In this document: positions 640 through 23,149 of the stretch, piece by piece | Position numbering within the stretch: position 1 is the first letter of the stretch | How the letters are laid out: every line of letters begins with the position of its first letter | Origin: a virus | Strand: one strand, 5' to 3' | DNA length: 23,830 nucleotides | Virus record (IMG/VR): IMGVR_UViG_3300025586_000117 | Span: 1-23,830 of that record | The notes under the pieces: model-generated | Databases searched by the model: none | What the model was told of the DNA's origin: nothing | What the model saw: the letters and a program-made list of their open reading frames with translations, nothing else | Made by a program: the position numbers and the translations under genes

Positions 640-710
640 AAGTATTTTATTGGGAGTAGTAGTAATCGTAGTGGGTAACTATTATTTCCAATAAAACACT
701 TTTACCCACT
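640..710 (+). promoter_or_regulatory. Leader with two mutually exclusive hairpins ahead of the HNH gene
   Basis: Stem 1 pairs AAGTATTTTATTGG (640-653) with CCAATAAAACACTT (688-701): 13 of 14 pairs, with one A-C mismatch. Stem 2 pairs AGTGGGTAA (670-678) with TTACCCACT (702-710): 9 of 9. The arms alternate (1-2-1'-2'), and no bases separate 701 from 702, so a full pseudoknot is sterically unlikely and the stems should compete. Stem 2 ends on the base before the ATG at 711 and would hide the ribosome binding region, while stem 1 would leave it open. Confidence 0.55.
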
Positions 711-1187
711 ATGATTAAGAAGTGTTATTGCGGTAGGGAATTTATTACCTATCCATCAAAAATTAAATTAGGTCGTGGAAAGTATTGTAGTAAAGAATGT
801 TGCTTAAAAGTAACCAACAAGGTTTTAGAGAAGAATGGAAAGAAAACACGATTTACTAAGGGACAAAACGCTTGGAATAGAAAAGAATTTGTTATTACCA
901 AGGGAAGATTGAACGGCAAGAGATATAAGTTAATCTATAAGCCAGAACATCCATTTGCGACAAGAAAAGGATATGTTAGAGAACACAGACTTATAATGGA
1001 AGAGCATATAGGAAGATATTTAACTAAAAACGAGGTCGTACATCATAAAGACGGAGATACATTAAATAATAATATAAATAATTTAGAGTTACTAAGCGGG
1101 AGCGAACATCGTCGTTTACATTTAAAAGACAATGTTCACAAACGCTGGGAAGGATACGAATCCCGCTCTACTGCCCTATGCAAATAG
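711..1187 (+). CDS. HNH homing-type endonuclease (158 aa)
   Basis: This is probably a free-standing homing nuclease. The N-terminus has a small Cys cluster (C5, C7, C26, C30, C31) that may bind zinc. The HNH core spans about residues 90-138: REHRLIMEEHIGRYL, then VVHHKDGDTLNNNINNLELL with H111, H112 and D114, and the closing SEHRRLH. This fits the HNH_3-type family of phage endonucleases. Its stop (TAG 1185-1187) overlaps the apparent terminase start (ATG 1178-1180), so the two genes are translationally coupled. It follows the competing-hairpin leader at 640-710. The terminase P-loop about 90 bases downstream is broken by a frame change, which may be linked to past homing at that site. DNA target and activity are inferred from the family. 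Confidence 0.85.
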   Translation: MIKKCYCGREFITYPSKIKLGRGKYCSKECCLKVTNKVLEKNGKKTRFTKGQNAWNRKEFVITKGRLNGKRYKLIYKPEHPFATRKGYVREHRLIMEEHIGRYLTKNEVVHHKDGDTLNNNINNLELLSGSEHRRLHLKDNVHKRWEGYESRSTALCK

Positions 1188-2661
1188 AAATAAAACCTAC
1201 CATAAAGCAAGACCTCGCTTGGTCTGCTTTACAAGATAGTATAATTAAATATATAGGTTTTGGCGGTGGAGCGGGAGGTTGAATGGCGGAAAGAGTTGGC
1301 TTGGAGCAGAATGGCTTACAACTAATTGTCACTTCTATCCAGGTTCACGTTGGTTTATTGGCAGAAATGAGTTGAGTCGTTTGATGAAGAGTTCTTTTAT
1401 AACATTTGAGAAGGTGTGTACTTTTCACGGAATTAGTCGTGATAGTTGGAAATTAAACGGACAATACAACTATATTGAGTTTGTGAGTGGTATGGCTAAG
1501 GGAAGTCGAATAGACCTCTTAGACCTCAAGTATCAGCCTTCAGACCCTATGTATGAACGACTAGGGTCACTTGAATATACTGGTGGTTGGATAGAAGAAG
1601 CTGGTGAGATAGATTTTATGGCATTTGATGTCTTAAAGTCCCGTATAGGTCGTCATAGAAACGATGACTATAAGCTAACCCCAGCCAAAATGCTTATTAC
1701 CTTCAACCCTAAGAAAAACTGGTTATATCAACTATTCTACAAACCCAAGAGAGATAGAACCTTACCTAAAGAATATGAGTTCATTCAGTCCTTATATGGA
1801 GATAATCCATTTACAGCTAAGACTTATGGAGAGGATTTGAAAGAAATTAAGGACAAAGCTACTAAACAGCGTCTTATGTTTGGAAACTGGGATTATGAAG
1901 ACAGTTCCAAAGCTATATGTAATTATGACGCTTTAGTAGATGTATTTAGTAATACGATTAATAAGACAGAAGACAAATATCTTTTAGTAGATATCGCAGA
2001 TGACGGCTCAGACAAGACCGTCTTCTCATTCTGGGAAGGACTAGAAGAATATCGCAGAGAGTCATTTGAACACCTAACCACAGAACCGATTATAGACAAG
2101 ATACGTGAGTATGCTAGAGATGACCGTATCCCTTACTCTCACGTAGCTGTAGATGCCATAGGAGTAGGGACGGGTGTAGCTAATAGCTCAATGTTAGACG
2201 GGATTATAGGCTTTAAAAGCTCTTTTTCAGCTATTAAGACAGACGACAACATAGTCAGACTTCCAAATGTCTCTTATACGAAGAACGCTCCTCTTGTATC
2301 TAACTACAAGAACTTAAGAGTTCAATGTATCTATACACTTGGAGAGCTTGTCAACAATCATAAAATCGCAAGCCAAATGGAAGGCAAGTTAAAGGACGAA
2401 ATTATTGAAGAGTTATCAGTTTATAAAGACACTACTAAAGACGATAACAAGCGAATGGCGACCACAAAAGACGAAGTTAAAGAGTTAATAGCTCGTAGCC
2501 CAGACGCTTCAGATTGTTGGCTCATGAGAATGTATTTTATAATTAAGGGCAAGATGTTAACCGACCAACCTCTAGAAAGTTCGTTCGCAACAAACTCTCA
2601 AAGTGAAATTTTTGATAAAAATGAAGAATCTAATAAAACTAAAATAAATTCTAACAAATGA
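1178..2661 (+). CDS. terL: Terminase large subunit, with a frame change inside the P-loop
   Basis: This is the ATP-driven DNA-packaging motor and headful nuclease, acting at the portal. ATG 1178 opens 34 codons ending GFGGGAGG and then TGA (1280-1282). The rest of the protein runs from 1279 in the -1 frame, beginning LNGGKSWLGAEW. Together they give a P-loop, but with extra bases: removing the eight bases 1280-1287 would give GGGAGGGKSWLG in one frame. Numbering from 1279, a Walker B-like GGWIEEAGE lies at 102-110 and the coupling motif TFNP at 141-144. Nuclease aspartates appear in LLVDIADDGSD (D238), VAVDAIG (D292) and SPDASDCW (about 412-419). Everything after 1279 is intact for 460 codons, so selection has kept it. 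Either a recent indel, an assembly error, recoding or a TTG restart at 1279 explains the split. Family identity is secure; the start is not. Confidence 0.85.
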
Positions 2662-6241: not shown

Positions 6242-6814
6242 ATGACAACACAAAAAGGGATGGACACCTTAAGTCCAACAGAAGCACTTAAAGAAATAGA
6301 TGGAGAACAATTTCCAAAACTCTACGCTACAACCGAAAGGTTGGCTAAAGCAGAAGAATTAAGTTCCAACTATAAAATTCGTGCCGAAAAAGCTGAAGCC
6401 GAGAGTAAAGAACTCAAAGCTAAAGCAGAAGTAGAGCCTTCTAAAAAGCCAGAGGAGACCCCAACTCCTACAAAGGAAACGGAGACACCAACTCCTAAAA
6501 ATGACTATTCCTTACAAGATATTAGAGCTTTATCAAAAGTTCACGACGACGACGTAGAAAGAGTCACCAAGTTCGCAAAGGGCGAAGGTGTATCTGTCGC
6601 CGAAGTTATGAAAGATAAAGACCTAAAAGCTATCTTAAAGAATAGAAACGAAGAACGAAAAACAGCTAAAGCTACTTCAACTGGCAAGGGCAAACGTGGA
6701 ACTTCTAAAGTTTCAATAAAGTCCATTAAAGACAAAGCAAACAAATACGAAGATTTAGAGTCAGATGAAGATTACGACGCATTAGTTGATTCTCGTTTAA
6801 AACAGTCAAGATAG
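6242..6814 (+). CDS. Capsid scaffolding-like protein (190 aa)
   Basis: This likely internal scaffold guides capsid assembly and is then removed. It sits immediately before the major capsid gene, the usual place. The sequence is highly charged and mostly helical: a coiled-coil segment at about residues 30-62 (ATTERLAKAEELSSNYKIRA, then EKAEAESKELKAKAE), a disordered Pro/Thr/Glu linker (about 63-87), and a Lys/Arg-rich helical C-terminus that could bind the shell. ATG 6242 gives the longest form; ATG 6260 (MDTLSPTEAL) is also possible. Residues 15-46 are echoed by the orphan ORF at 5608, separated from it by an HNH gene. No protease signature is visible, so any maturation protease is elsewhere or absent. 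Confidence 0.65.
   Translation: MTTQKGMDTLSPTEALKEIDGEQFPKLYATTERLAKAEELSSNYKIRAEKAEAESKELKAKAEVEPSKKPEETPTPTKETETPTPKNDYSLQDIRALSKVHDDDVERVTKFAKGEGVSVAEVMKDKDLKAILKNRNEERKTAKATSTGKGKRGTSKVSIKSIKDKANKYEDLESDEDYDALVDSRLKQSR
6368..6378 (+). repeat. Direct repeat copy 2 flanking the HNH cassette
   Basis: This is the second AACTATAAAAT, inside the scaffold-like gene at codons 43-46. Recombination or excision between the copies would give a continuous scaffold reading frame. Confidence 0.6.
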
Positions 6815-7765: not shown

Positions 7766-7785
7766 ACACAATTATATGATTGTGT
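7766..7785 (+). terminator. Hairpin directly after the capsid gene
   Basis: ACACAAT (7766-7772) pairs perfectly with ATTGTGT (7779-7785) across the loop TATATG, two bases after the capsid stop codon. There is no T-run, so it may be a 3'-end stabiliser or weak attenuator rather than a true terminator. It leads straight into the HNH gene. Confidence 0.4.
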
Positions 7786-7797
7786 CAAGCAATACTT

Positions 7798-8277
7798 ATG
7801 AAATATATTAAAACAGGACAAAAACGTTCAGATGCCAAGAGAAAACTAAAAATAATGGTTGATGATACTGATTATAAGTATCTTAATAGTTTTTCTTGGC
7901 AAGTAAGTAAAGAAAATACAGTAGTTGCGAGAATAAATAAAAGAACTATTCTTATGTCGCGTTTAATAATGAATGCTCCAGAAAATTTAGAGGTTGACCA
8001 TATAAGTGGGAATCGTCTAGATAATCAGCGTTCAAATCTTCGTCTTGCTACGAGTTCTCAAAATAAGATGAACCGTGGACCAAGAAAAGATAATAAATGT
8101 GGATATAAGGGAGTATCGTGGCACAAACAAAACAAGAAATGGACGTCAAGAATAATGGCTAATGGTAAATATCAGCATTTAGGTCTGTTTGATAATATAT
8201 TAGACGCAGTTGAAGCATATAATTCAGCTGCTAAAAAATATTTTAAGGAATTTGCTTGGACAAATAGTTTAAGTTAA
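7798..8277 (+). CDS. HNH endonuclease with AP2 DNA-binding domain (159 aa)
   Basis: This is the third homing-type nuclease of the head module and belongs to a different subfamily from the other two. ATG 7798 is preferred; an upstream TTG at 7780 only adds six residues that read through the post-capsid hairpin. Residues about 45-90 form the HNH core: ARINKRTILMSRLIM, then LEVDHISGNRLDNQRSNLRL, with the Asp-His pair and two Asn. Residues about 103-150 form an AP2-type DNA-binding domain (YKGVSWHKQNKKWTSRI, then YQHLGLFDNILDAVEAYNSA). HNH_3 plus AP2 is a common layout in phage and intron nucleases. The last codon overlaps the first arm of the switch-like element at 8273. It probably arrived as a mobile gene between the capsid gene and its downstream partner. 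Confidence 0.9.
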   Translation: MKYIKTGQKRSDAKRKLKIMVDDTDYKYLNSFSWQVSKENTVVARINKRTILMSRLIMNAPENLEVDHISGNRLDNQRSNLRLATSSQNKMNRGPRKDNKCGYKGVSWHKQNKKWTSRIMANGKYQHLGLFDNILDAVEAYNSAAKKYFKEFAWTNSLS

Positions 8278-8352
8278 ACTTCTTATGGGGTAAGATAAGG
8301 TGTTAAACCAATTTCACCCATCTGAAAGAAGTTTAACACCACATCTTGCCCC
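8273..8352 (+). promoter_or_regulatory. Element with two competing hairpins after the HNH gene
   Basis: One stem pairs GTTAAACTTCTT (8273-8284) with AAGAAGTTTAAC (8326-8337), 12 of 12. A second, longer stem pairs 8287-8308 with 8331-8352. It contains GGTGTTAAAC/GTTTAACACC and GGGG/CCCC, with one G-U pair and two mismatches over 22 positions. An inner TTTC/GAAA pair (8313-8316 with 8324-8327) extends the second stem. Both use GTTTAAC at 8331-8337, so only one can form. The motif GTTAAAC occurs in both 5' arms. The next ATG is 25 bases downstream. No long T-run follows. Confidence 0.6.
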
Positions 8353-8377
8353 CTAAAAGAAACTAAGCTAAACAAAT

Positions 8378-18345: not shown

Positions 18346-18375
18346 ATATGTTTAAGTTAATTAAAAATTTTATAG

Positions 18376-18381
18376 ATTATA
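18376..18381 (-). promoter_or_regulatory. -10 element for the minus-strand membrane gene
   Basis: The minus strand reads TATAAT, an exact -10 hexamer, 30 bases before the gene's ATG. No convincing -35 is present at 16-18 bases. The same bases overlap the first arm of the large inverted-repeat region on the + strand (18379-18386). Confidence 0.35.
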
Positions 18382-18782
18382 ACTCATAGTTCTTTCTACT
18401 CTTAGTGAAACGTTCCTGTATGCTACCCCCTTAGTAGGAAAGGAAACGCAACCAAAGCCTATTGCTCGGTCTTGCTGAAGTTCTAGAAACCCATTGTATC
18501 TTGGTAGAACTTAGAACTGACTGTAAATGAGATAGCTTTTGACCCCCTCATTCCTACTTCTTAATCGCCCAATTCACTATTCAGCTTAACGATTAAGCAA
18601 TACAGATAATAACATTCTGCTATGCTATGCTACCCCTTGAGTTATCAGAGGTATCCGCACGGTAATCATCTACTTATGTCGGCATCCAGCGGAGGATTGA
18701 TGAATTAGCCTATAGCCTATCCGCCAGTTAAACGATAAATCCCCAGAAGTCGATAAACAAACTGGGGAAGTATCGACTTTTT
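18379..18782 (+). ncRNA. Putative structured non-coding RNA (about 400 nt) with terminator
   Basis: No ORF of useful length exists on either strand here, base composition is richer in G+C than the neighbouring genes, and inverted repeats nest as in a folded RNA. ATAACTCA (18379-18386) pairs with TGAGTTAT (18638-18645) and encloses two branches. Branch one is AGTAGGAA (18433-18440) with TTCCTACT (18551-18558), holding AAGTTCTA (18478-18485) with TAGAACTT (18505-18512). Branch two is CTTAATCG (18560-18567) with CGATTAAG (18590-18597). A 3' part has GCGGA (18689-18693), able to pair with TCCGC at 18654-18658 or at 18720-18724. The region ends in a terminator at 18747-18782, which fixes the + strand as the likely transcript. 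TATGCTACCCC occurs twice (18419-18429 and 18626-18636). I see no tmRNA, RNase P, group I or group II intron signature. The 5' end is uncertain. Confidence 0.5.
18747..18782 (+). terminator. Rho-independent terminator with a competing stem
   Basis: AAGTCGATA (18747-18755) pairs perfectly with TATCGACTT (18771-18779), and the T-run continues to 18782. The neighbouring CCCCAG (18741-18746) pairs with CTGGGG (18762-18767), whose 3' arm lies in the terminator loop. The arms alternate with no gap at the 5' side, so the second stem should block the terminator. This is an attenuator-like arrangement. Confidence 0.65.
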
Positions 18783-18820
18783 AATCAAATTGTAATTTAA
18801 TACTATCAGAAAAAATAAAC

Positions 18821-18866
18821 CTTGTCAAGCTTTTTTAGACAAGTAAATAATGGCTTAACAAAGCCA
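18821..18866 (+). promoter_or_regulatory. Two small hairpins ahead of the 18875 gene
   Basis: CTTGTC (18821-18826) pairs with GACAAG (18838-18843) around a T-rich loop. TGGCTT (18851-18856) pairs with AAGCCA (18861-18866) around AACA. The second ends eight bases before ATG 18875, so it may affect ribosome access. Confidence 0.4.
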
Positions 18867-18874
18867 CAAATAAT

Positions 18875-19715: not shown

Positions 19716-22199
19716 ATGAAAAAATATATCTTAATAGTAATTATAGGGTTAGTAATAGCAGGTGGTGTATCAGCAAGTTGGTGGTCTGATTTTTTTGGAA
19801 CAGAAGAATTAGGAAAAGCATCAACTATTTACCAACCAAACATTCTTCCAGAAGCCGACTCTACTTACGATTTAGGTTCTAGTGCTGTTCGTTGGGCAAA
19901 TATATATGGAGATACATTCTATGGAGATGGAAGCAACCTAACTGGCGTATCTGGAAGTGGGATAGAAAACCTAAACTCTGAAACTCTCGGCTCAATAGGA
20001 GATGTATCAACTTCAACTTTAGGATATGGACATTTGATTATGTGGAATGGAAGCACTTGGCAAGATACCGCCACTTCTTCATTAGGAATTAGCGGAACAG
20101 CAGGAAACTGGGCTACTTCTTCATCAGATTACTGGTTAACAATTCAAGACACAGCCGACTTAACCGAAGGAACTAATCTCTACTATACTCAAGCAAGAGT
20201 ATGGGACGACACTTGGGCTTCAACAACCTTAGATACTCTTTTAACTAATTCACAAACCGCTTATGCTTGGGGTGACCACGGCATCGCAGGATACGCCTCC
20301 TCAACTGGAATGTATGCTAAGTATGGAACATTAGCTGATTTACAGTTAGCAGTTTCAGATGACTTTCACAATTTAGGCGGAACAGACGCCAACACGACTT
20401 ATACAGCTGGGACAAATATCACTTTAACGGGAACTCAATTTGATGTAGATGACGCTTTTCTAAAGAATAACGCTTCTGATACGACAACTGGAGGAATTAC
20501 GATGTTAAGCGGAACGACTACAAGCTCATTTTATATTGGCAACGACCTCACAGTATCGGGCGACACCACAATAGTAGATTTATATTTAACCAATGAAATA
20601 GTTTCAGGATATACAACCACAACATTAGGACTATTCACTCAAGCAAATGGACATATAGGAGGTAATTTAACCGTAGATGGCACAGGACACGATAGCTTTT
20701 CGGACTTTGTAGCCAACGAACATTTAGATTGGACAGCTTCAGTAGGAACTATCCACTCAGATAACTACACAAATACTACTTATACAGCAGGGGACTTTGC
20801 TCATAATTCTTTAAGTGGATTAAACGATGGGGACAGTTATGAACATTTAACAGCTACACAAGTCGCAGCATTACACGCTGAAAGTCATAATATCGCTTCA
20901 CATTCTGACACCACGGCAACTGGGGCAGAGTTAGATGATTTAACAGACAACTCAATGGTTGATACTTTGCACAGACATAGTGAATTAAGTGCTTCAGATG
21001 GGACTCCTGACAGGGCTTTGGTAGTTAATGCTTCTGGGTACGTCGGCATCGGGACGACGACGCCAAATACGCTTATGGTCTTGCATGACGATTTTGGTTC
21101 AGGAATTTATGGAGATATTCTTACCTTACAAGAAAATACTGGTAATTCAGGTGCGGGAACAGGGATAAGATTTAGAACAGGCATTACTTCAGGTGGTGTT
21201 ACGGTGGCAAGAATAAAAGGACTTGATGTAGGTGGTTATGATGGAGCATTAATTTTTGAAGTTGGAAATAATTCAGGTTATTCAGATGCAACAACGGAAA
21301 TGATGCGTATTACAAACGACGGCAACGTCGGCATCGGAACGACGACAATAAATAGTAGGTTATCCATTCAAGGTGGAGGAAATGATATTCTAAACTTATT
21401 TGGAGGTACAGGAACTGAAATGGTCACGGTATTAAATGACGGCAACGTCGGCATAGGGACGGCGAGTCCTGGGTACAAATTGGAAGTGGTTGGGGGTACT
21501 CGTATATTAATAGATGCTTCGGCTCTCGAACTTACGAATACTACGGTAGGCTCTCAAGATTACATATCATTTACTGGAGATAATCGTTATTATTATCTTG
21601 GGAAAGAAAGTTCTGCTGGAGGAACTATTTTTGGAGGGACATCAGCATACGCAATGGTTATGGGTATGTATTATGCAAATTCGATACAATTTGCTACAGA
21701 TAATGTGGTTAAGGTTACAATAGACGGAACAGGCAACGTCGGCATTGGGGATACGACTCCAAGTCAGAAATTAGATGTTGCTGGAAATGTTAGAGCAGAT
21801 GATTACTTAGAATATTCAAGACCAATCCCTAAAGGAGAAGCATTGCCTATAATTATGAATATGAAAAACAAAGAAGACGGGACATTAGACCATAAAAGTT
21901 TTCCCTCATTTACTTCAAAAGAAATAGAAATTTCAGAAGTAAAAGATAAAGAAGGAAAAGTTGTAAAAGAAGCAAAAATAATAACCAAAGAGAGTGTTTC
22001 ACTATCAAGTCAGATTAAGTATCTGATTAAGGGTATGCAAGAACAACAAGAAACAATAGAAGAGTTAAAGATAAGAATAGAAGAGCTTGAAAGTTCTAAA
22101 AAAGTTATGGGAGTTGGAGATAGCTGTTCACCTTGCGAAGATTTGAATTGGCGGCAGGAGTTTATAAATTGGATTAAGAGTTATCCACTTGACAATTGA
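19716..22199 (+). CDS. Exported large fibre/adhesin with VGIGTT repeats and coiled-coil end (827 aa)
   Basis: Residues 1-20 (MKKYILIVIIGLVIAGGVSA) are a signal peptide. Next comes WWSDFFGTEELGKAST and the fibre motif ADSTYDLGSSAVRWANIYGD. Long Thr/Ser/Gly beta segments follow (NWATSSSDYW, AYAWGDHGIAGYASS, LTATQVAALHAESHNIASHS). Four VGIG motifs occur (YVGIGTTTP, NVGIGTTTI, NVGIGTASP, NVGIGDTTP). The end has ADDYLEYSRPIPKGEALPII, then a coiled coil (QIKYLIKGMQEQQETIEELK). This is like the chaperone region of S74-type fibres but without a clear self-cleavage site. Two Cys (SCSPCED) lie near the C-terminus. The protein probably binds cell surfaces. The signal peptide is puzzling for a virion part; it may be cell-displayed, or derived from a cellular adhesin. 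Confidence 0.7.
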   Translation: MKKYILIVIIGLVIAGGVSASWWSDFFGTEELGKASTIYQPNILPEADSTYDLGSSAVRWANIYGDTFYGDGSNLTGVSGSGIENLNSETLGSIGDVSTSTLGYGHLIMWNGSTWQDTATSSLGISGTAGNWATSSSDYWLTIQDTADLTEGTNLYYTQARVWDDTWASTTLDTLLTNSQTAYAWGDHGIAGYASSTGMYAKYGTLADLQLAVSDDFHNLGGTDANTTYTAGTNITLTGTQFDVDDAFLKNNASDTTTGGITMLSGTTTSSFYIGNDLTVSGDTTIVDLYLTNEIVSGYTTTTLGLFTQANGHIGGNLTVDGTGHDSFSDFVANEHLDWTASVGTIHSDNYTNTTYTAGDFAHNSLSGLNDGDSYEHLTATQVAALHAESHNIASHSDTTATGAELDDLTDNSMVDTLHRHSELSASDGTPDRALVVNASGYVGIGTTTPNTLMVLHDDFGSGIYGDILTLQENTGNSGAGTGIRFRTGITSGGVTVARIKGLDVGGYDGALIFEVGNNSGYSDATTEMMRITNDGNVGIGTTTINSRLSIQGGGNDILNLFGGTGTEMVTVLNDGNVGIGTASPGYKLEVVGGTRILIDASALELTNTTVGSQDYISFTGDNRYYYLGKESSAGGTIFGGTSAYAMVMGMYYANSIQFATDNVVKVTIDGTGNVGIGDTTPSQKLDVAGNVRADDYLEYSRPIPKGEALPIIMNMKNKEDGTLDHKSFPSFTSKEIEISEVKDKEGKVVKEAKIITKESVSLSSQIKYLIKGMQEQQETIEELKIRIEELESSKKVMGVGDSCSPCEDLNWRQEFINWIKSYPLDN
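21039..21759 (+). repeat. Four near-identical GGCAACGTCGGCAT-type coding repeats
   Basis: The DNA coding for the VGIG motifs is unusually GC-rich and conserved: at 21039-21062, 21318-21347, 21438-21466 and 21732-21759. GTCGGCAT is shared by all four, and GGCAACGTCGGCAT by the last three. Neighbouring codons for the same amino acids are AT-rich. Similarity at the DNA level beyond protein need suggests recent copying or recombination. Confidence 0.6.
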
Positions 22200-22217
22200 A
22201 TAAATTTTTGCTAAACT
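22189..22217 (+). promoter_or_regulatory. Strong sigma70-type promoter for the recombinase-lysis transcript
   Basis: TTGACA at 22189-22194 is an exact -35 element. After a 17-base spacer comes TAAACT at 22212-22217 (four of six -10 positions). It overlaps the last codons of the fibre gene. The start would be near 22224, immediately before the interleaved inverted repeats. Confidence 0.6.
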
Positions 22218-22305
22218 ATTAACAAATAACCTTGCGACATAAAACCCGATTTGTTTAATAGTTACTCGCAAGGTTCTATTAAGCCAGTCGGGTTTTGTGT
22301 TTAGC
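22210..22305 (+). promoter_or_regulatory. Leader with interleaved inverted repeats (possible pseudoknot)
   Basis: Four pairings are visible. A: 22213-22227 with 22249-22263 (14 pairs, one bulge). B: AACCTTGCGA 22228-22237 with TCGCAAGGTT 22266-22275 (10 of 10). C: AAAACCCGA 22241-22249 with TCGGGTTTT 22288-22296 (9 of 9). D: GCTAAAC 22210-22216 with GTTTAGC 22299-22305 (7 of 7). B and C alternate with connecting loops of 3, 16 and 12 bases, the layout of an H-type pseudoknot. If transcription starts near 22224, most of the 5' arms of A and D are not in the RNA and belong to the promoter DNA. C followed by GTGTTT could also act as a terminator. The recombinase ATG is eight bases after D. Confidence 0.6.
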
Positions 22306-22312
22306 CAAACAA

Positions 22313-23149
22313 ATGAATAATACATTTGCAGAGTTCAGGAAATATCTTTTAGTTTCTAAAGGTGTTTCAGACGTAACCATTCAGGGCTACGTGGGCAGTA
22401 TCAAGCCAATGTTCAGAAGAATGAAAACTCACTACCCTATTTATCCGACACACGAACAGATAACCGACTACATAGCGTGGATGTATGACCAAGAATACTC
22501 ATATCATTATATCGTAAATACAAGCCTAGCGATAGAATGGTGGACAAAGTTTCACGGATATCCAATAAAGTTAGGCAGACCACGAAAGCCAAGAACAATA
22601 ATAAAAGATGTTTTAAGTGAAGCAGAGATAACCAGAATGATAGCCATAACCAAGAATATCCGAGAGAAAGCAATAATAACCTTACTGGCTTACAGCGGGA
22701 TACGAAACAAAGAACTATGCGGATTAAGAGTATGTGATATAAACTTAGGTGATAATATGATTAGAGTGTTATCTGGAAAAGGTAGTAGAGATAGACTTAT
22801 CCACATATCAGGTGATTGCTCAAGAGTAATGCTTGAATATCTAAACCAATATCAAAGAACACCAGAAGATTATTTATTCACAACATTAGTTAGAAATGAA
22901 AAATATTCAAGTTGGGCATTAAGAAAGTTAATGAAAGTTTTATCAAATAGAGCAGACATTAGAAAAAGAGTTTATCCGCATTTATTAAGACATAGTTTAG
23001 CAGTTAATTTATTAAGGAGAGGATGTAATCTGGTATTGATACAAAGACAATTAGGACACGCTTATATCAGTTCAACAGAAATCTATATAGCGTCATTTCC
23101 TCAAAGAGTTCAGTCACAATATCACTTATTTATACCATCATATTTATGA
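22313..23149 (+). CDS. Tyrosine recombinase / integrase (278 aa)
   Basis: The enzyme cuts and rejoins DNA through a 3'-phosphotyrosine, for phage integration or dimer resolution. All catalytic positions are visible: R131 (SGIRNKEL), K156 (SGKGSRDR), H223 and R226 (HLLRH), H249 (QLGHAYI) and nucleophile Y258 (TEIYIA). Residues about 1-82 are the SAM-like core-binding domain (FAEFRKYLLVSKGVSDVTIQ). Length and layout match XerC/D-type enzymes more than large lambda-type integrases; there is no arm-binding domain. ATG 22313 is chosen because a TTG start at 22295 would read through the structured leader. A strong promoter lies upstream. The stop overlaps the next ATG (23146). Whether it integrates the phage cannot be decided, since no attachment site can be confirmed. 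Confidence 0.9.
   Translation: MNNTFAEFRKYLLVSKGVSDVTIQGYVGSIKPMFRRMKTHYPIYPTHEQITDYIAWMYDQEYSYHYIVNTSLAIEWWTKFHGYPIKLGRPRKPRTIIKDVLSEAEITRMIAITKNIREKAIITLLAYSGIRNKELCGLRVCDINLGDNMIRVLSGKGSRDRLIHISGDCSRVMLEYLNQYQRTPEDYLFTTLVRNEKYSSWALRKLMKVLSNRADIRKRVYPHLLRHSLAVNLLRRGCNLVLIQRQLGHAYISSTEIYIASFPQRVQSQYHLFIPSYL

What the first reader, a model, noticed from the sequence alone, without database searches (positions are those of the whole stretch)
22189..22312. Promoter plus pseudoknot-type leader ahead of the recombinase
TTGACA-17-TAAACT predicts a start near 22224, just before perfect stems B (10 bp) and C (9 bp), which interleave like an H-type pseudoknot. Two more pairings (A and D) overlap the promoter DNA itself. 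Few random 100-base stretches have four long interlocked pairings. It may be a riboswitch, an attenuator, or a DNA site bound by the recombinase.
Basis: partly seen in the sequence, partly recalled or inferred. Interest (0 to 1): 0.75.

Follow-up and report, generated by a model that had tools for sequence, protein, structure and literature searches.

The report
Structured RNA leader of phage recombinase
Just ahead of a phage's DNA-recombining enzyme gene lies a promoter followed by a stretch whose RNA almost certainly folds into a long hairpin with competing pairings, and related phages carry folded leaders in the same place (one a previously undescribed RNA family), which suggests that these phages control this enzyme through the shape of its messenger RNA.

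Summary
In detail: TTGACA-17-TAAACT and perfect stems A, B, C, D lie where stated, and the clustering is far beyond local chance (0 of 5000 shuffles). The reading changes in one respect. Stem C is the core of a 25-bp hairpin (one mismatch, four G·U; MFE -36.6, z -6.2) whose apical loop contains B's 3' arm. B and this hairpin are therefore probably successive, mutually exclusive folds rather than one stable pseudoknot. Relatives decide between RNA and DNA. In seven of about 25 recombinase relatives the same slot, promoter then leader then ATG, holds a three-way-junction RNA (P1-P2-P3) whose P3 loop pairs with a segment 5-13 nt before the start codon; an eighth has the loop pairing only. Covariation is strong (17 of 23 pairs change on both sides; loop pairing). 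A model trained on five finds two held-out members and nothing else in 1.16 Mb. Rfam has no match. The window leader is not a member of that family but sits in the same slot. Best explanation: a cis-acting 5' leader that throttles recombinase translation, especially from tail-operon read-through. Trigger unknown; no experiment.

The parts
22189..22194 (+). -35 box TTGACA (inside the last codons of the tail-fibre gene)
   Evidence: sequence; TTGAC(A/T) recurs upstream of the recombinase in L271, L272, L273, L276 and L296
22212..22217 (+). -10 box TAAACT, 17-nt spacer; predicted start about 22224
   Evidence: sequence; start not mapped
22210..22216 (+). 5' arm of D (GCTAAAC), overlapping the -10 box, present only in read-through RNA; partner 22299-22305
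22214..22227 (+). 5' arm of A and its extension (AACTATTAACAAAT), overlapping -10 and start site; partner 22249-22263
22228..22237 (+). 5' arm of B (AACCTTGCGA), complementary to the apical loop of the long hairpin
   Evidence: forms first as the RNA grows
22236..22261 (+). 5' arm of the long hairpin (contains C 22241-22249)
   Evidence: MFE fold: 16 bp + 1x1 mismatch + 9 bp, four G-U pairs
22262..22275 (+). apical loop UUACUCGCAAGGUU containing B's 3' arm (22266-22275)
22276..22301 (+). 3' arm of the long hairpin (contains C' 22288-22296)
22299..22305 (+). 3' arm of D (GTTTAGC), 7 nt before the ATG
22307..22314 (+). AAACAAAT start context, complementary to 22249-22256; reaches into the ATG
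   Evidence: AAACAAAT also precedes the ATGs at 6242 and 8378
22313..23149 (+). tyrosine recombinase, 278 aa; conserved R131, K156, H223, R226, H249, Y258
   Evidence: Pfam PF00589 E 4.8e-32; alignments A1 and A2
19716..22199 (+). upstream tail-fibre gene; possible source of read-through transcripts
   Evidence: PHROG tail fibre, E 8e-10; fibre-recombinase order also seen in relatives

Best explanation
The region is the cis-acting 5' leader of the recombinase mRNA. A dedicated promoter starts RNA at about 22224. As the RNA grows, B folds first; once the 3' arm has been made, it refolds into a 25-bp hairpin between the start site and the ATG. Hairpin and side pairings (D, and 22249-22256 with the AAACAAAT-ATG context) keep ribosomes, including those finishing the fibre gene at 22199, from starting on the recombinase. 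Read-through RNA from the tail operon also carries the 5' arms of A and D, which promoter-born RNA lacks, so the two RNAs can fold differently, as in T4 genes e and I-TevI. Shown: the sequence features, their non-randomness, and the same promoter-structure-ATG layout with covarying RNA in relatives. Inferred: start site, refolding, translational effect. Unknown: what relieves the block.
For: Stems and promoter; 0/5000 shuffles, rare among control leaders; z -6.2; predicted refolding from B to the long hairpin when the 3' arm is made. Same slot in relatives: L283, L284, L285, L287, L288, L290, L323, L327 have a P3 hairpin whose loop is complementary to a segment 5-13 nt before the ATG, own loop with own leader (53 vs 29.9 +/- 4.8 matched bases, 6/100000 permutations). 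P1-P2-P3 covariation: 17/23 pairs change on both sides, 96.4% of cells paired vs 71% shuffled, 0/500; slid registers at most 6. R3 finds held-out L290 (2e-10) and L285 (7e-9), nothing else in 1.16 Mb. All 8 non-Watson-Crick cells in the hand-drawn P2/P3/PK helices are G-U (helices chosen to be paired). L296: a 16-bp perfect hairpin spanning start codon and promoter that only read-through RNA could form. L276 vs L275: leader 97% identical against 72% just upstream. T4 precedents: PMC2988022, PMC3014915.
Against: No homologue of this very leader was found, so its own pairs have no covariation. The nearest relatives (L271, L272; 64% and 62%) have promoter and only a 6-bp hairpin. Several family members have almost no spacer (10 bp in G053/G054), so the leader is dispensable. 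The long hairpin is predicted in read-through and promoter-born RNA alike, so discrimination between them by A and D is weak in the energy model. No Shine-Dalgarno sequence to sequester. No expression data.
Confidence: 0.68

Rival explanations
1. Ligand- or protein-sensing regulatory RNA: the leader, and the P1-P2-P3 leaders of relatives with conserved P2 loop (GACG/GTCG) and P2-P3 joint (GUAAU-like), bind a metabolite or the recombinase itself, as T4 gp32 binds a leader pseudoknot.
For: Conserved unpaired bases next to covarying helices in R3 members; loop partner next to the start codon; leader pseudoknot autoregulation known for T4 gene 32 (PMC3014915).
Against: The window leader lacks those conserved bases and does not match R3. 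No ligand known; no Rfam riboswitch match.
Confidence: 0.3
2. DNA site: attP or an operator bound by the recombinase; the inverted repeats are binding sites.
For: Spacer next to a tyrosine recombinase gene; several words occur in both orientations; I-TevI binds an operator overlapping its own promoter (PMC2988022).
Against: Arm spacings of 14-38+ bp, no arms around a 6-8 bp core; imperfect pairs in the hairpin are G-U apart from one mismatch; in relatives the pairing is tied to -10 box and ATG; G053/G054 have no such spacer on either side of the gene; leader not repeated in the record.
Confidence: 0.15
3. Spacer element that only separates tail operon and recombinase (mRNA end or stability hairpin), without regulating recombinase translation.
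For: Other spacers of this phage have hairpins; the one after the capsid gene is conserved with compensatory changes; L286 has a terminator-like hairpin in the recombinase slot.
Against: No U-tract after the hairpin; in relatives the paired segment sits at a nearly fixed short distance from the recombinase ATG.
Confidence: 0.15
4. Chance accumulation of inverted repeats.
For: 19-bp interleaved pairs occur somewhere in 7% of whole-window shuffles; nearest relatives lack it.
Against: 0/5000 locally, z -6.2, location between promoter and start codon, structured leaders in the same slot in relatives.
Confidence: 0.07

Closest known systems
T4 genes e and I-TevI, and Aeh1 mobE: promoter inside an inhibitory RNA hairpin (PMC2988022, PMC3014915)
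   Same: A promoter overlaps the 5' arms of pairings whose 3' arms lie at the start codon; structure differs between read-through and promoter-born RNA (clearest in relative L296).
   Different: Here the gene is a tyrosine recombinase, a 25-bp hairpin also lies downstream of the start site, and no Shine-Dalgarno sequence is involved; not demonstrated experimentally.
T4 gene 32 leader pseudoknot (autoregulation by gp32; PMC3014915)
   Same: Phage mRNA leader with interleaved pairing upstream of the initiation region of a DNA-acting protein.
   Different: In relatives the pseudoknot strand itself lies 5-13 nt before the ATG; in the window B and the long hairpin look mutually exclusive; no protein binding known.
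STAXI motif, Rfam RF01728 (PMC2864571)
   Same: Pseudoknot-containing motif near XerDC-type integrases and other DNA-handling genes.
   Different: Tandem repeats of a small pseudoknot in Enterobacteriales; no STAXI match in the window or in the relatives tested.
P1-P2-P3 recombinase leader (model R3, described here; no Rfam match)
   Same: Same slot in homologous genes: promoter, RNA structure, recombinase ATG; hairpin whose loop pairs with a flank.
   Different: The window leader lacks P2 and the junction motif and its loop partner lies on the 5' side; it does not match R3.

Membership tests
Rfam families (4227 models) | match at or above gathering score | tested here: not met
   none in the window; best local hit E 0.22, far below its cut-off
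R3 recombinase-leader RNA (this work) | match to the covariance model | tested here: not met
   window absent from hits at E <= 10 while held-out L290 and L285 hit at 2e-10 and 7e-9
R3 recombinase-leader RNA (this work) | hairpin loop complementary to a segment 5-13 nt before the recombinase ATG | tested here: not met
   window loop 22262-22275 pairs with its 5' flank 22228-22237; a looser equivalent (22249-22256 with 22307-22314) exists
T4-type promoter-in-hairpin control | 5' arm overlaps promoter or start site | tested here: met
   D 22210-22216 and A 22214-22222 overlap -10 and start region
T4-type promoter-in-hairpin control | 3' arm covers the ribosome binding site or start codon | tested here: inconclusive
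   D' ends 7 nt before the ATG; start-region pairing probability hardly differs between read-through and promoter-born RNA (mean unpaired 0.43 vs 0.49)
T4-type promoter-in-hairpin control | translation differs between the two transcripts | not testable with these tools
   needs reporters or infection data
H-type pseudoknot | two helices in interleaved order | tested here: met
   B and C
H-type pseudoknot | both helices can form at once | tested here: inconclusive
   minimal C (9 bp) could pair across a 3-nt loop; the full 25-bp hairpin overlaps B by 2 nt and leaves no connecting loops (geometry from general knowledge)
Intrinsic terminator / attenuator | G+C-rich hairpin followed by a T run | tested here: not met
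   hairpin is followed by UAGCCAAACAAAUG
Tyrosine-integrase attP core | inverted arms of about 9-13 bp around a 6-8 bp overlap | tested here: not met
   no perfect pair of 7 bp or more in the region has a spacer below 14 bp
Tyrosine-integrase attP core | core shared with a host attB or attL/attR pair | not tested
   no host or integrated copy identified
Riboswitch | ligand-dependent refolding and expression | not testable with these tools
   no ligand assay possible

The most novel reading that the evidence does not exclude
Phage tyrosine recombinases of this family are governed by a previously undescribed class of folded mRNA leaders (R3 three-way junction with a loop-to-start-codon pseudoknot, and the simpler hairpin/competitor form in the window) that sense a ligand, the recombinase itself or the origin of the transcript, and so gate recombination through RNA folding.
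Probability: 0.35. Interest if true: 0.75.

Novelty: new variant of a known kind. Interest (0 to 1): 0.55.

Why it matters
When a phage makes its recombinase is usually described through promoters and repressors. A folded leader in the recombinase mRNA, with relatives that have evolved several different structures in the same slot, would mean that this decision is also made at the RNA level. The three-way-junction family found in relatives has clear covariation and no Rfam entry, so it can be tested directly with short RNAs and reporter fusions.

Tried and rejected
Single-protein scans of viral and bacterial genome collections found no close recombinase relative; the alignment scans did. Most terminase relatives have no integrase of this kind, so they could not show the leader. 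Bacterial relatives were only about 30% identical XerC/D-like proteins and were not used. The leader has no nucleotide homologue among the loci held. MAFFT alignment of relatives' leaders misaligned the helices; covariance models were used instead. Intrinsic terminator: rejected, no U-tract. attP core: no fitting arms. Invertible promoter: rejected, the -35 box lies outside the repeats. Inversion polymorphism around the recombinase: none seen between L276, L278 and L268 or L271 and L272. Window as R3 member: rejected. tRNA-derived site: no tRNA in the window.

Full report
WHAT THE SEQUENCE SHOWS. The window is a 23,830-base virus record: terminase, portal-like, capsid and tail genes, a tail-fibre gene 19716-22199, then a 278-aa tyrosine recombinase at 22313-23149 (Pfam Phage_integrase, E 4.8e-32). 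Between them are 113 bases. TTGACA (22189-22194), 17 bases and TAAACT (22212-22217) form a consensus-like promoter that starts inside the fibre gene's last codons.

IS IT MORE THAN CHANCE? Locally yes: 0 of 5000 dinucleotide shuffles of the 135-base leader reach the interleaved-stem score, and only 3 of 402 leaders of genes in related phages (this one included) score 41 or more. Taking the whole window as the search space the claim is modest: an interleaved pair of 19 bp arises in 7% of shuffles and a cluster this dense in 2%. Thermodynamically the leader stands out (MFE -36.6 kcal/mol, z -6.2, 0 of 200 shuffles).

WHAT FOLDS. With G-U pairs allowed, C is the middle of a 16-bp helix (22236-22251/22286-22301) that after one mismatch continues for 9 bp (22253-22261/22276-22284), with a 14-base loop UUACUCGCAAGGUU. 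Ten of those loop bases are the 3' arm of B; the 5' arm of B directly precedes the hairpin and overlaps it by two bases. A full B helix and a full long hairpin cannot form together, since no bases are left to span them (inference from pseudoknot geometry). Folding of growing transcripts predicts B first (-12.3 kcal/mol until about 22288) and then a switch to the long hairpin. The interleaving is real, but 'two competing folds' is a better description than 'H-type pseudoknot'. A pseudoknot of B with only the 9-bp core of C remains possible.

RELATIVES. Alignment-based scans found about 30 recombinases of the same family (38-64% identical). Where upstream sequence and gene order could be read, the recombinase usually follows a fibre-like gene and is followed by small, often membrane-type, genes. 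Their upstream regions differ greatly. The nearest two (L271, L272) keep TTGACA and a 6-bp hairpin only. L276/L278 and L274/L275 have nested hairpins and a leader more conserved than its surroundings (97% against 72% just upstream). L286 has a terminator-like hairpin. G053/G054 have a 10-base gap and no leader. L296 has a 16-bp perfect inverted repeat whose first arm is the promoter spacer and -10 region and whose second arm follows the start codon: only RNA reading through from upstream could form that hairpin.

A CONSERVED RNA IN EIGHT RELATIVES. L283, L284, L285, L287, L288, L290, L323 and L327 carry, mostly just downstream of a -10-like box, a helix P1 and a hairpin P3 of 10-15 bp, and then, 5-13 bases before the ATG, a 6-7-base segment complementary to the P3 loop; seven of them (all but L284) also have a small hairpin P2 with loop GACG or GTCG. 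The loop/partner pairs differ in almost every leader (GTACGAA/TTCGTAC, ACACAC/GTGTGT, ATATACC/GGTATAT, CCAGAC/GTCTGG, GCGCAAT/ATTGCGC, CTATAC/GTATAG, CTACGAA/TTCGTAG, CTAGACG/CGTCTAG). Loops match their own leader: 53 bases against 29.9 +/- 4.8 when loops are dealt to other leaders, 6 of 100,000 permutations. On a structural alignment of five (A14), 17 of 23 pairs change on both sides and 96.4% of cells pair, against 71.3% in shuffles (0 of 500) and at most 6 such pairs in slid registers. That alignment was fitted to the model's structure, so these counts lean towards it; independent support is that R1 from two sequences found L327 (7e-7), R2 found L283 and L288 (about 2e-7), and R3 found L290 and L285 (2e-10, 7e-9), with no other place in 1.16 Mb of related phage sequence. 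All hits lie just upstream of the recombinase. Rfam has no match for them. L284 shares loop pairing and P3 but does not match R3.

THE WINDOW AGAINST THIS FAMILY. The window leader does not match R3 and lacks its conserved P2 and junction bases; it is not a member. It shares the slot (promoter, structure, ATG) and the principle (a hairpin whose loop has a perfect complement in the flank), though the complement lies on the 5' side. A second pairing, 22249-22256 with 22307-22314, would cover the start codon and the AAACAAAT context also seen before two other genes of this phage (6242, 8378).

HOW IT PROBABLY WORKS. Shown: features, non-randomness, position, covarying RNA leaders in homologous genes. 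Inferred: mRNA from the local promoter begins near 22224; the hairpin between that start and the ATG limits initiation and blocks ribosomes arriving from the fibre gene; read-through RNA additionally carries the A and D arms and can fold differently. T4 genes e and I-TevI work in this way (PMC2988022, PMC3014915), and L296 looks like a clean case. For the window the energy model does not show strong discrimination between the two transcripts, so that step is the weakest. Autoregulation by the recombinase or ligand sensing is open; the T4 gene 32 leader pseudoknot is the nearest precedent (PMC3014915).

WHY RNA RATHER THAN DNA. In relatives the pairing is tied to the -10 box and the ATG, imperfect pairs are G-U, and one partner sits at an almost fixed distance from the start codon. 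In the window no inverted arms flank a 6-8-base core. The recombinase has intact catalytic residues, but what it recombines is unknown; no attachment core was found.

LIMITS. Promoters are consensus matches, not mapped starts. No host was identified. A paper search found no description of such a leader, but the library is partial.

Noticed in passing
L283:3898-3971, L285:297-366, L287:3896-3969, L288:2847-2912, L290:223-288, L323:439-507, L327:433-505: Three-way-junction RNA with loop-to-start-codon pairing ahead of recombinases in seven related phages; strong covariation, no Rfam match: a candidate new RNA family.
   Followed up: yes
window 18346-18874, minus strand: About 500 bases without long ORFs; minus-strand promoter TTGACA-17-TAGTAT leads into an interleaved stem pair AAGTCGAT ACTT CCCCAG TTTGTTT ATCGACTT CTGGGG. 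Possible structured non-coding RNA; no Rfam hit.
   Followed up: partly
window 645-711: Second interleaved-stem leader in this phage, after a TATAAT-like box: TTTTATTGG/CCAATAAAA and TAGTGGGTAA/TTACCCACTA, the latter reaching the ATG of an HNH endonuclease gene (711-1187).
   Followed up: partly
L029:3270-3365: HNH gene in a related phage with a TTGACA promoter and an H-type pair AGCGGTGAG/CTCACCGCT with GCCCTCGC/GCGAGGGC before the gene: mobile genes may share this kind of leader.
   Followed up: partly
window 8268-8370; L083:7776-7893: Hairpin downstream of the capsid gene, kept in L083 with two compensatory changes; the HNH gene 7780-8277 is absent from L083 at that spot, so it looks like a recent insertion.
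   Followed up: partly
window 1265-1285: Terminase reading frame is broken at the Walker A motif: upstream frame ...GFGGGAGG ends at TGA, the downstream ORF begins TTG in another frame (NGGKSW). Same bases in L002-L005: possible frameshift or split gene.
   Followed up: no
window 21029-21784 (fibre gene); L101/L102 fibre gene: GC-rich repeats GGCAACGTCGGCATCGGGACGACG (GNVGIGTT) in an AT-rich gene, nearly identical in DNA to repeats in another phage's fibre gene: possible recombination or exchange sites.
   Followed up: no
L296:3931-3977: 16-bp perfect inverted repeat AAGAGAATCTGTAGTA/TACTACAGATTCTCTT around the recombinase ATG with the first arm inside the promoter: textbook layout for T4-type control.
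   Followed up: partly
L296:1409-2106: About ten tandem copies of a 69-bp unit, 95-98% alike, upstream of the recombinase.
   Followed up: no
G049 (L253) 2274-2765 and 6251-6736: One related phage record carries two tyrosine recombinases; only the second belongs clearly to this family.
   Followed up: no
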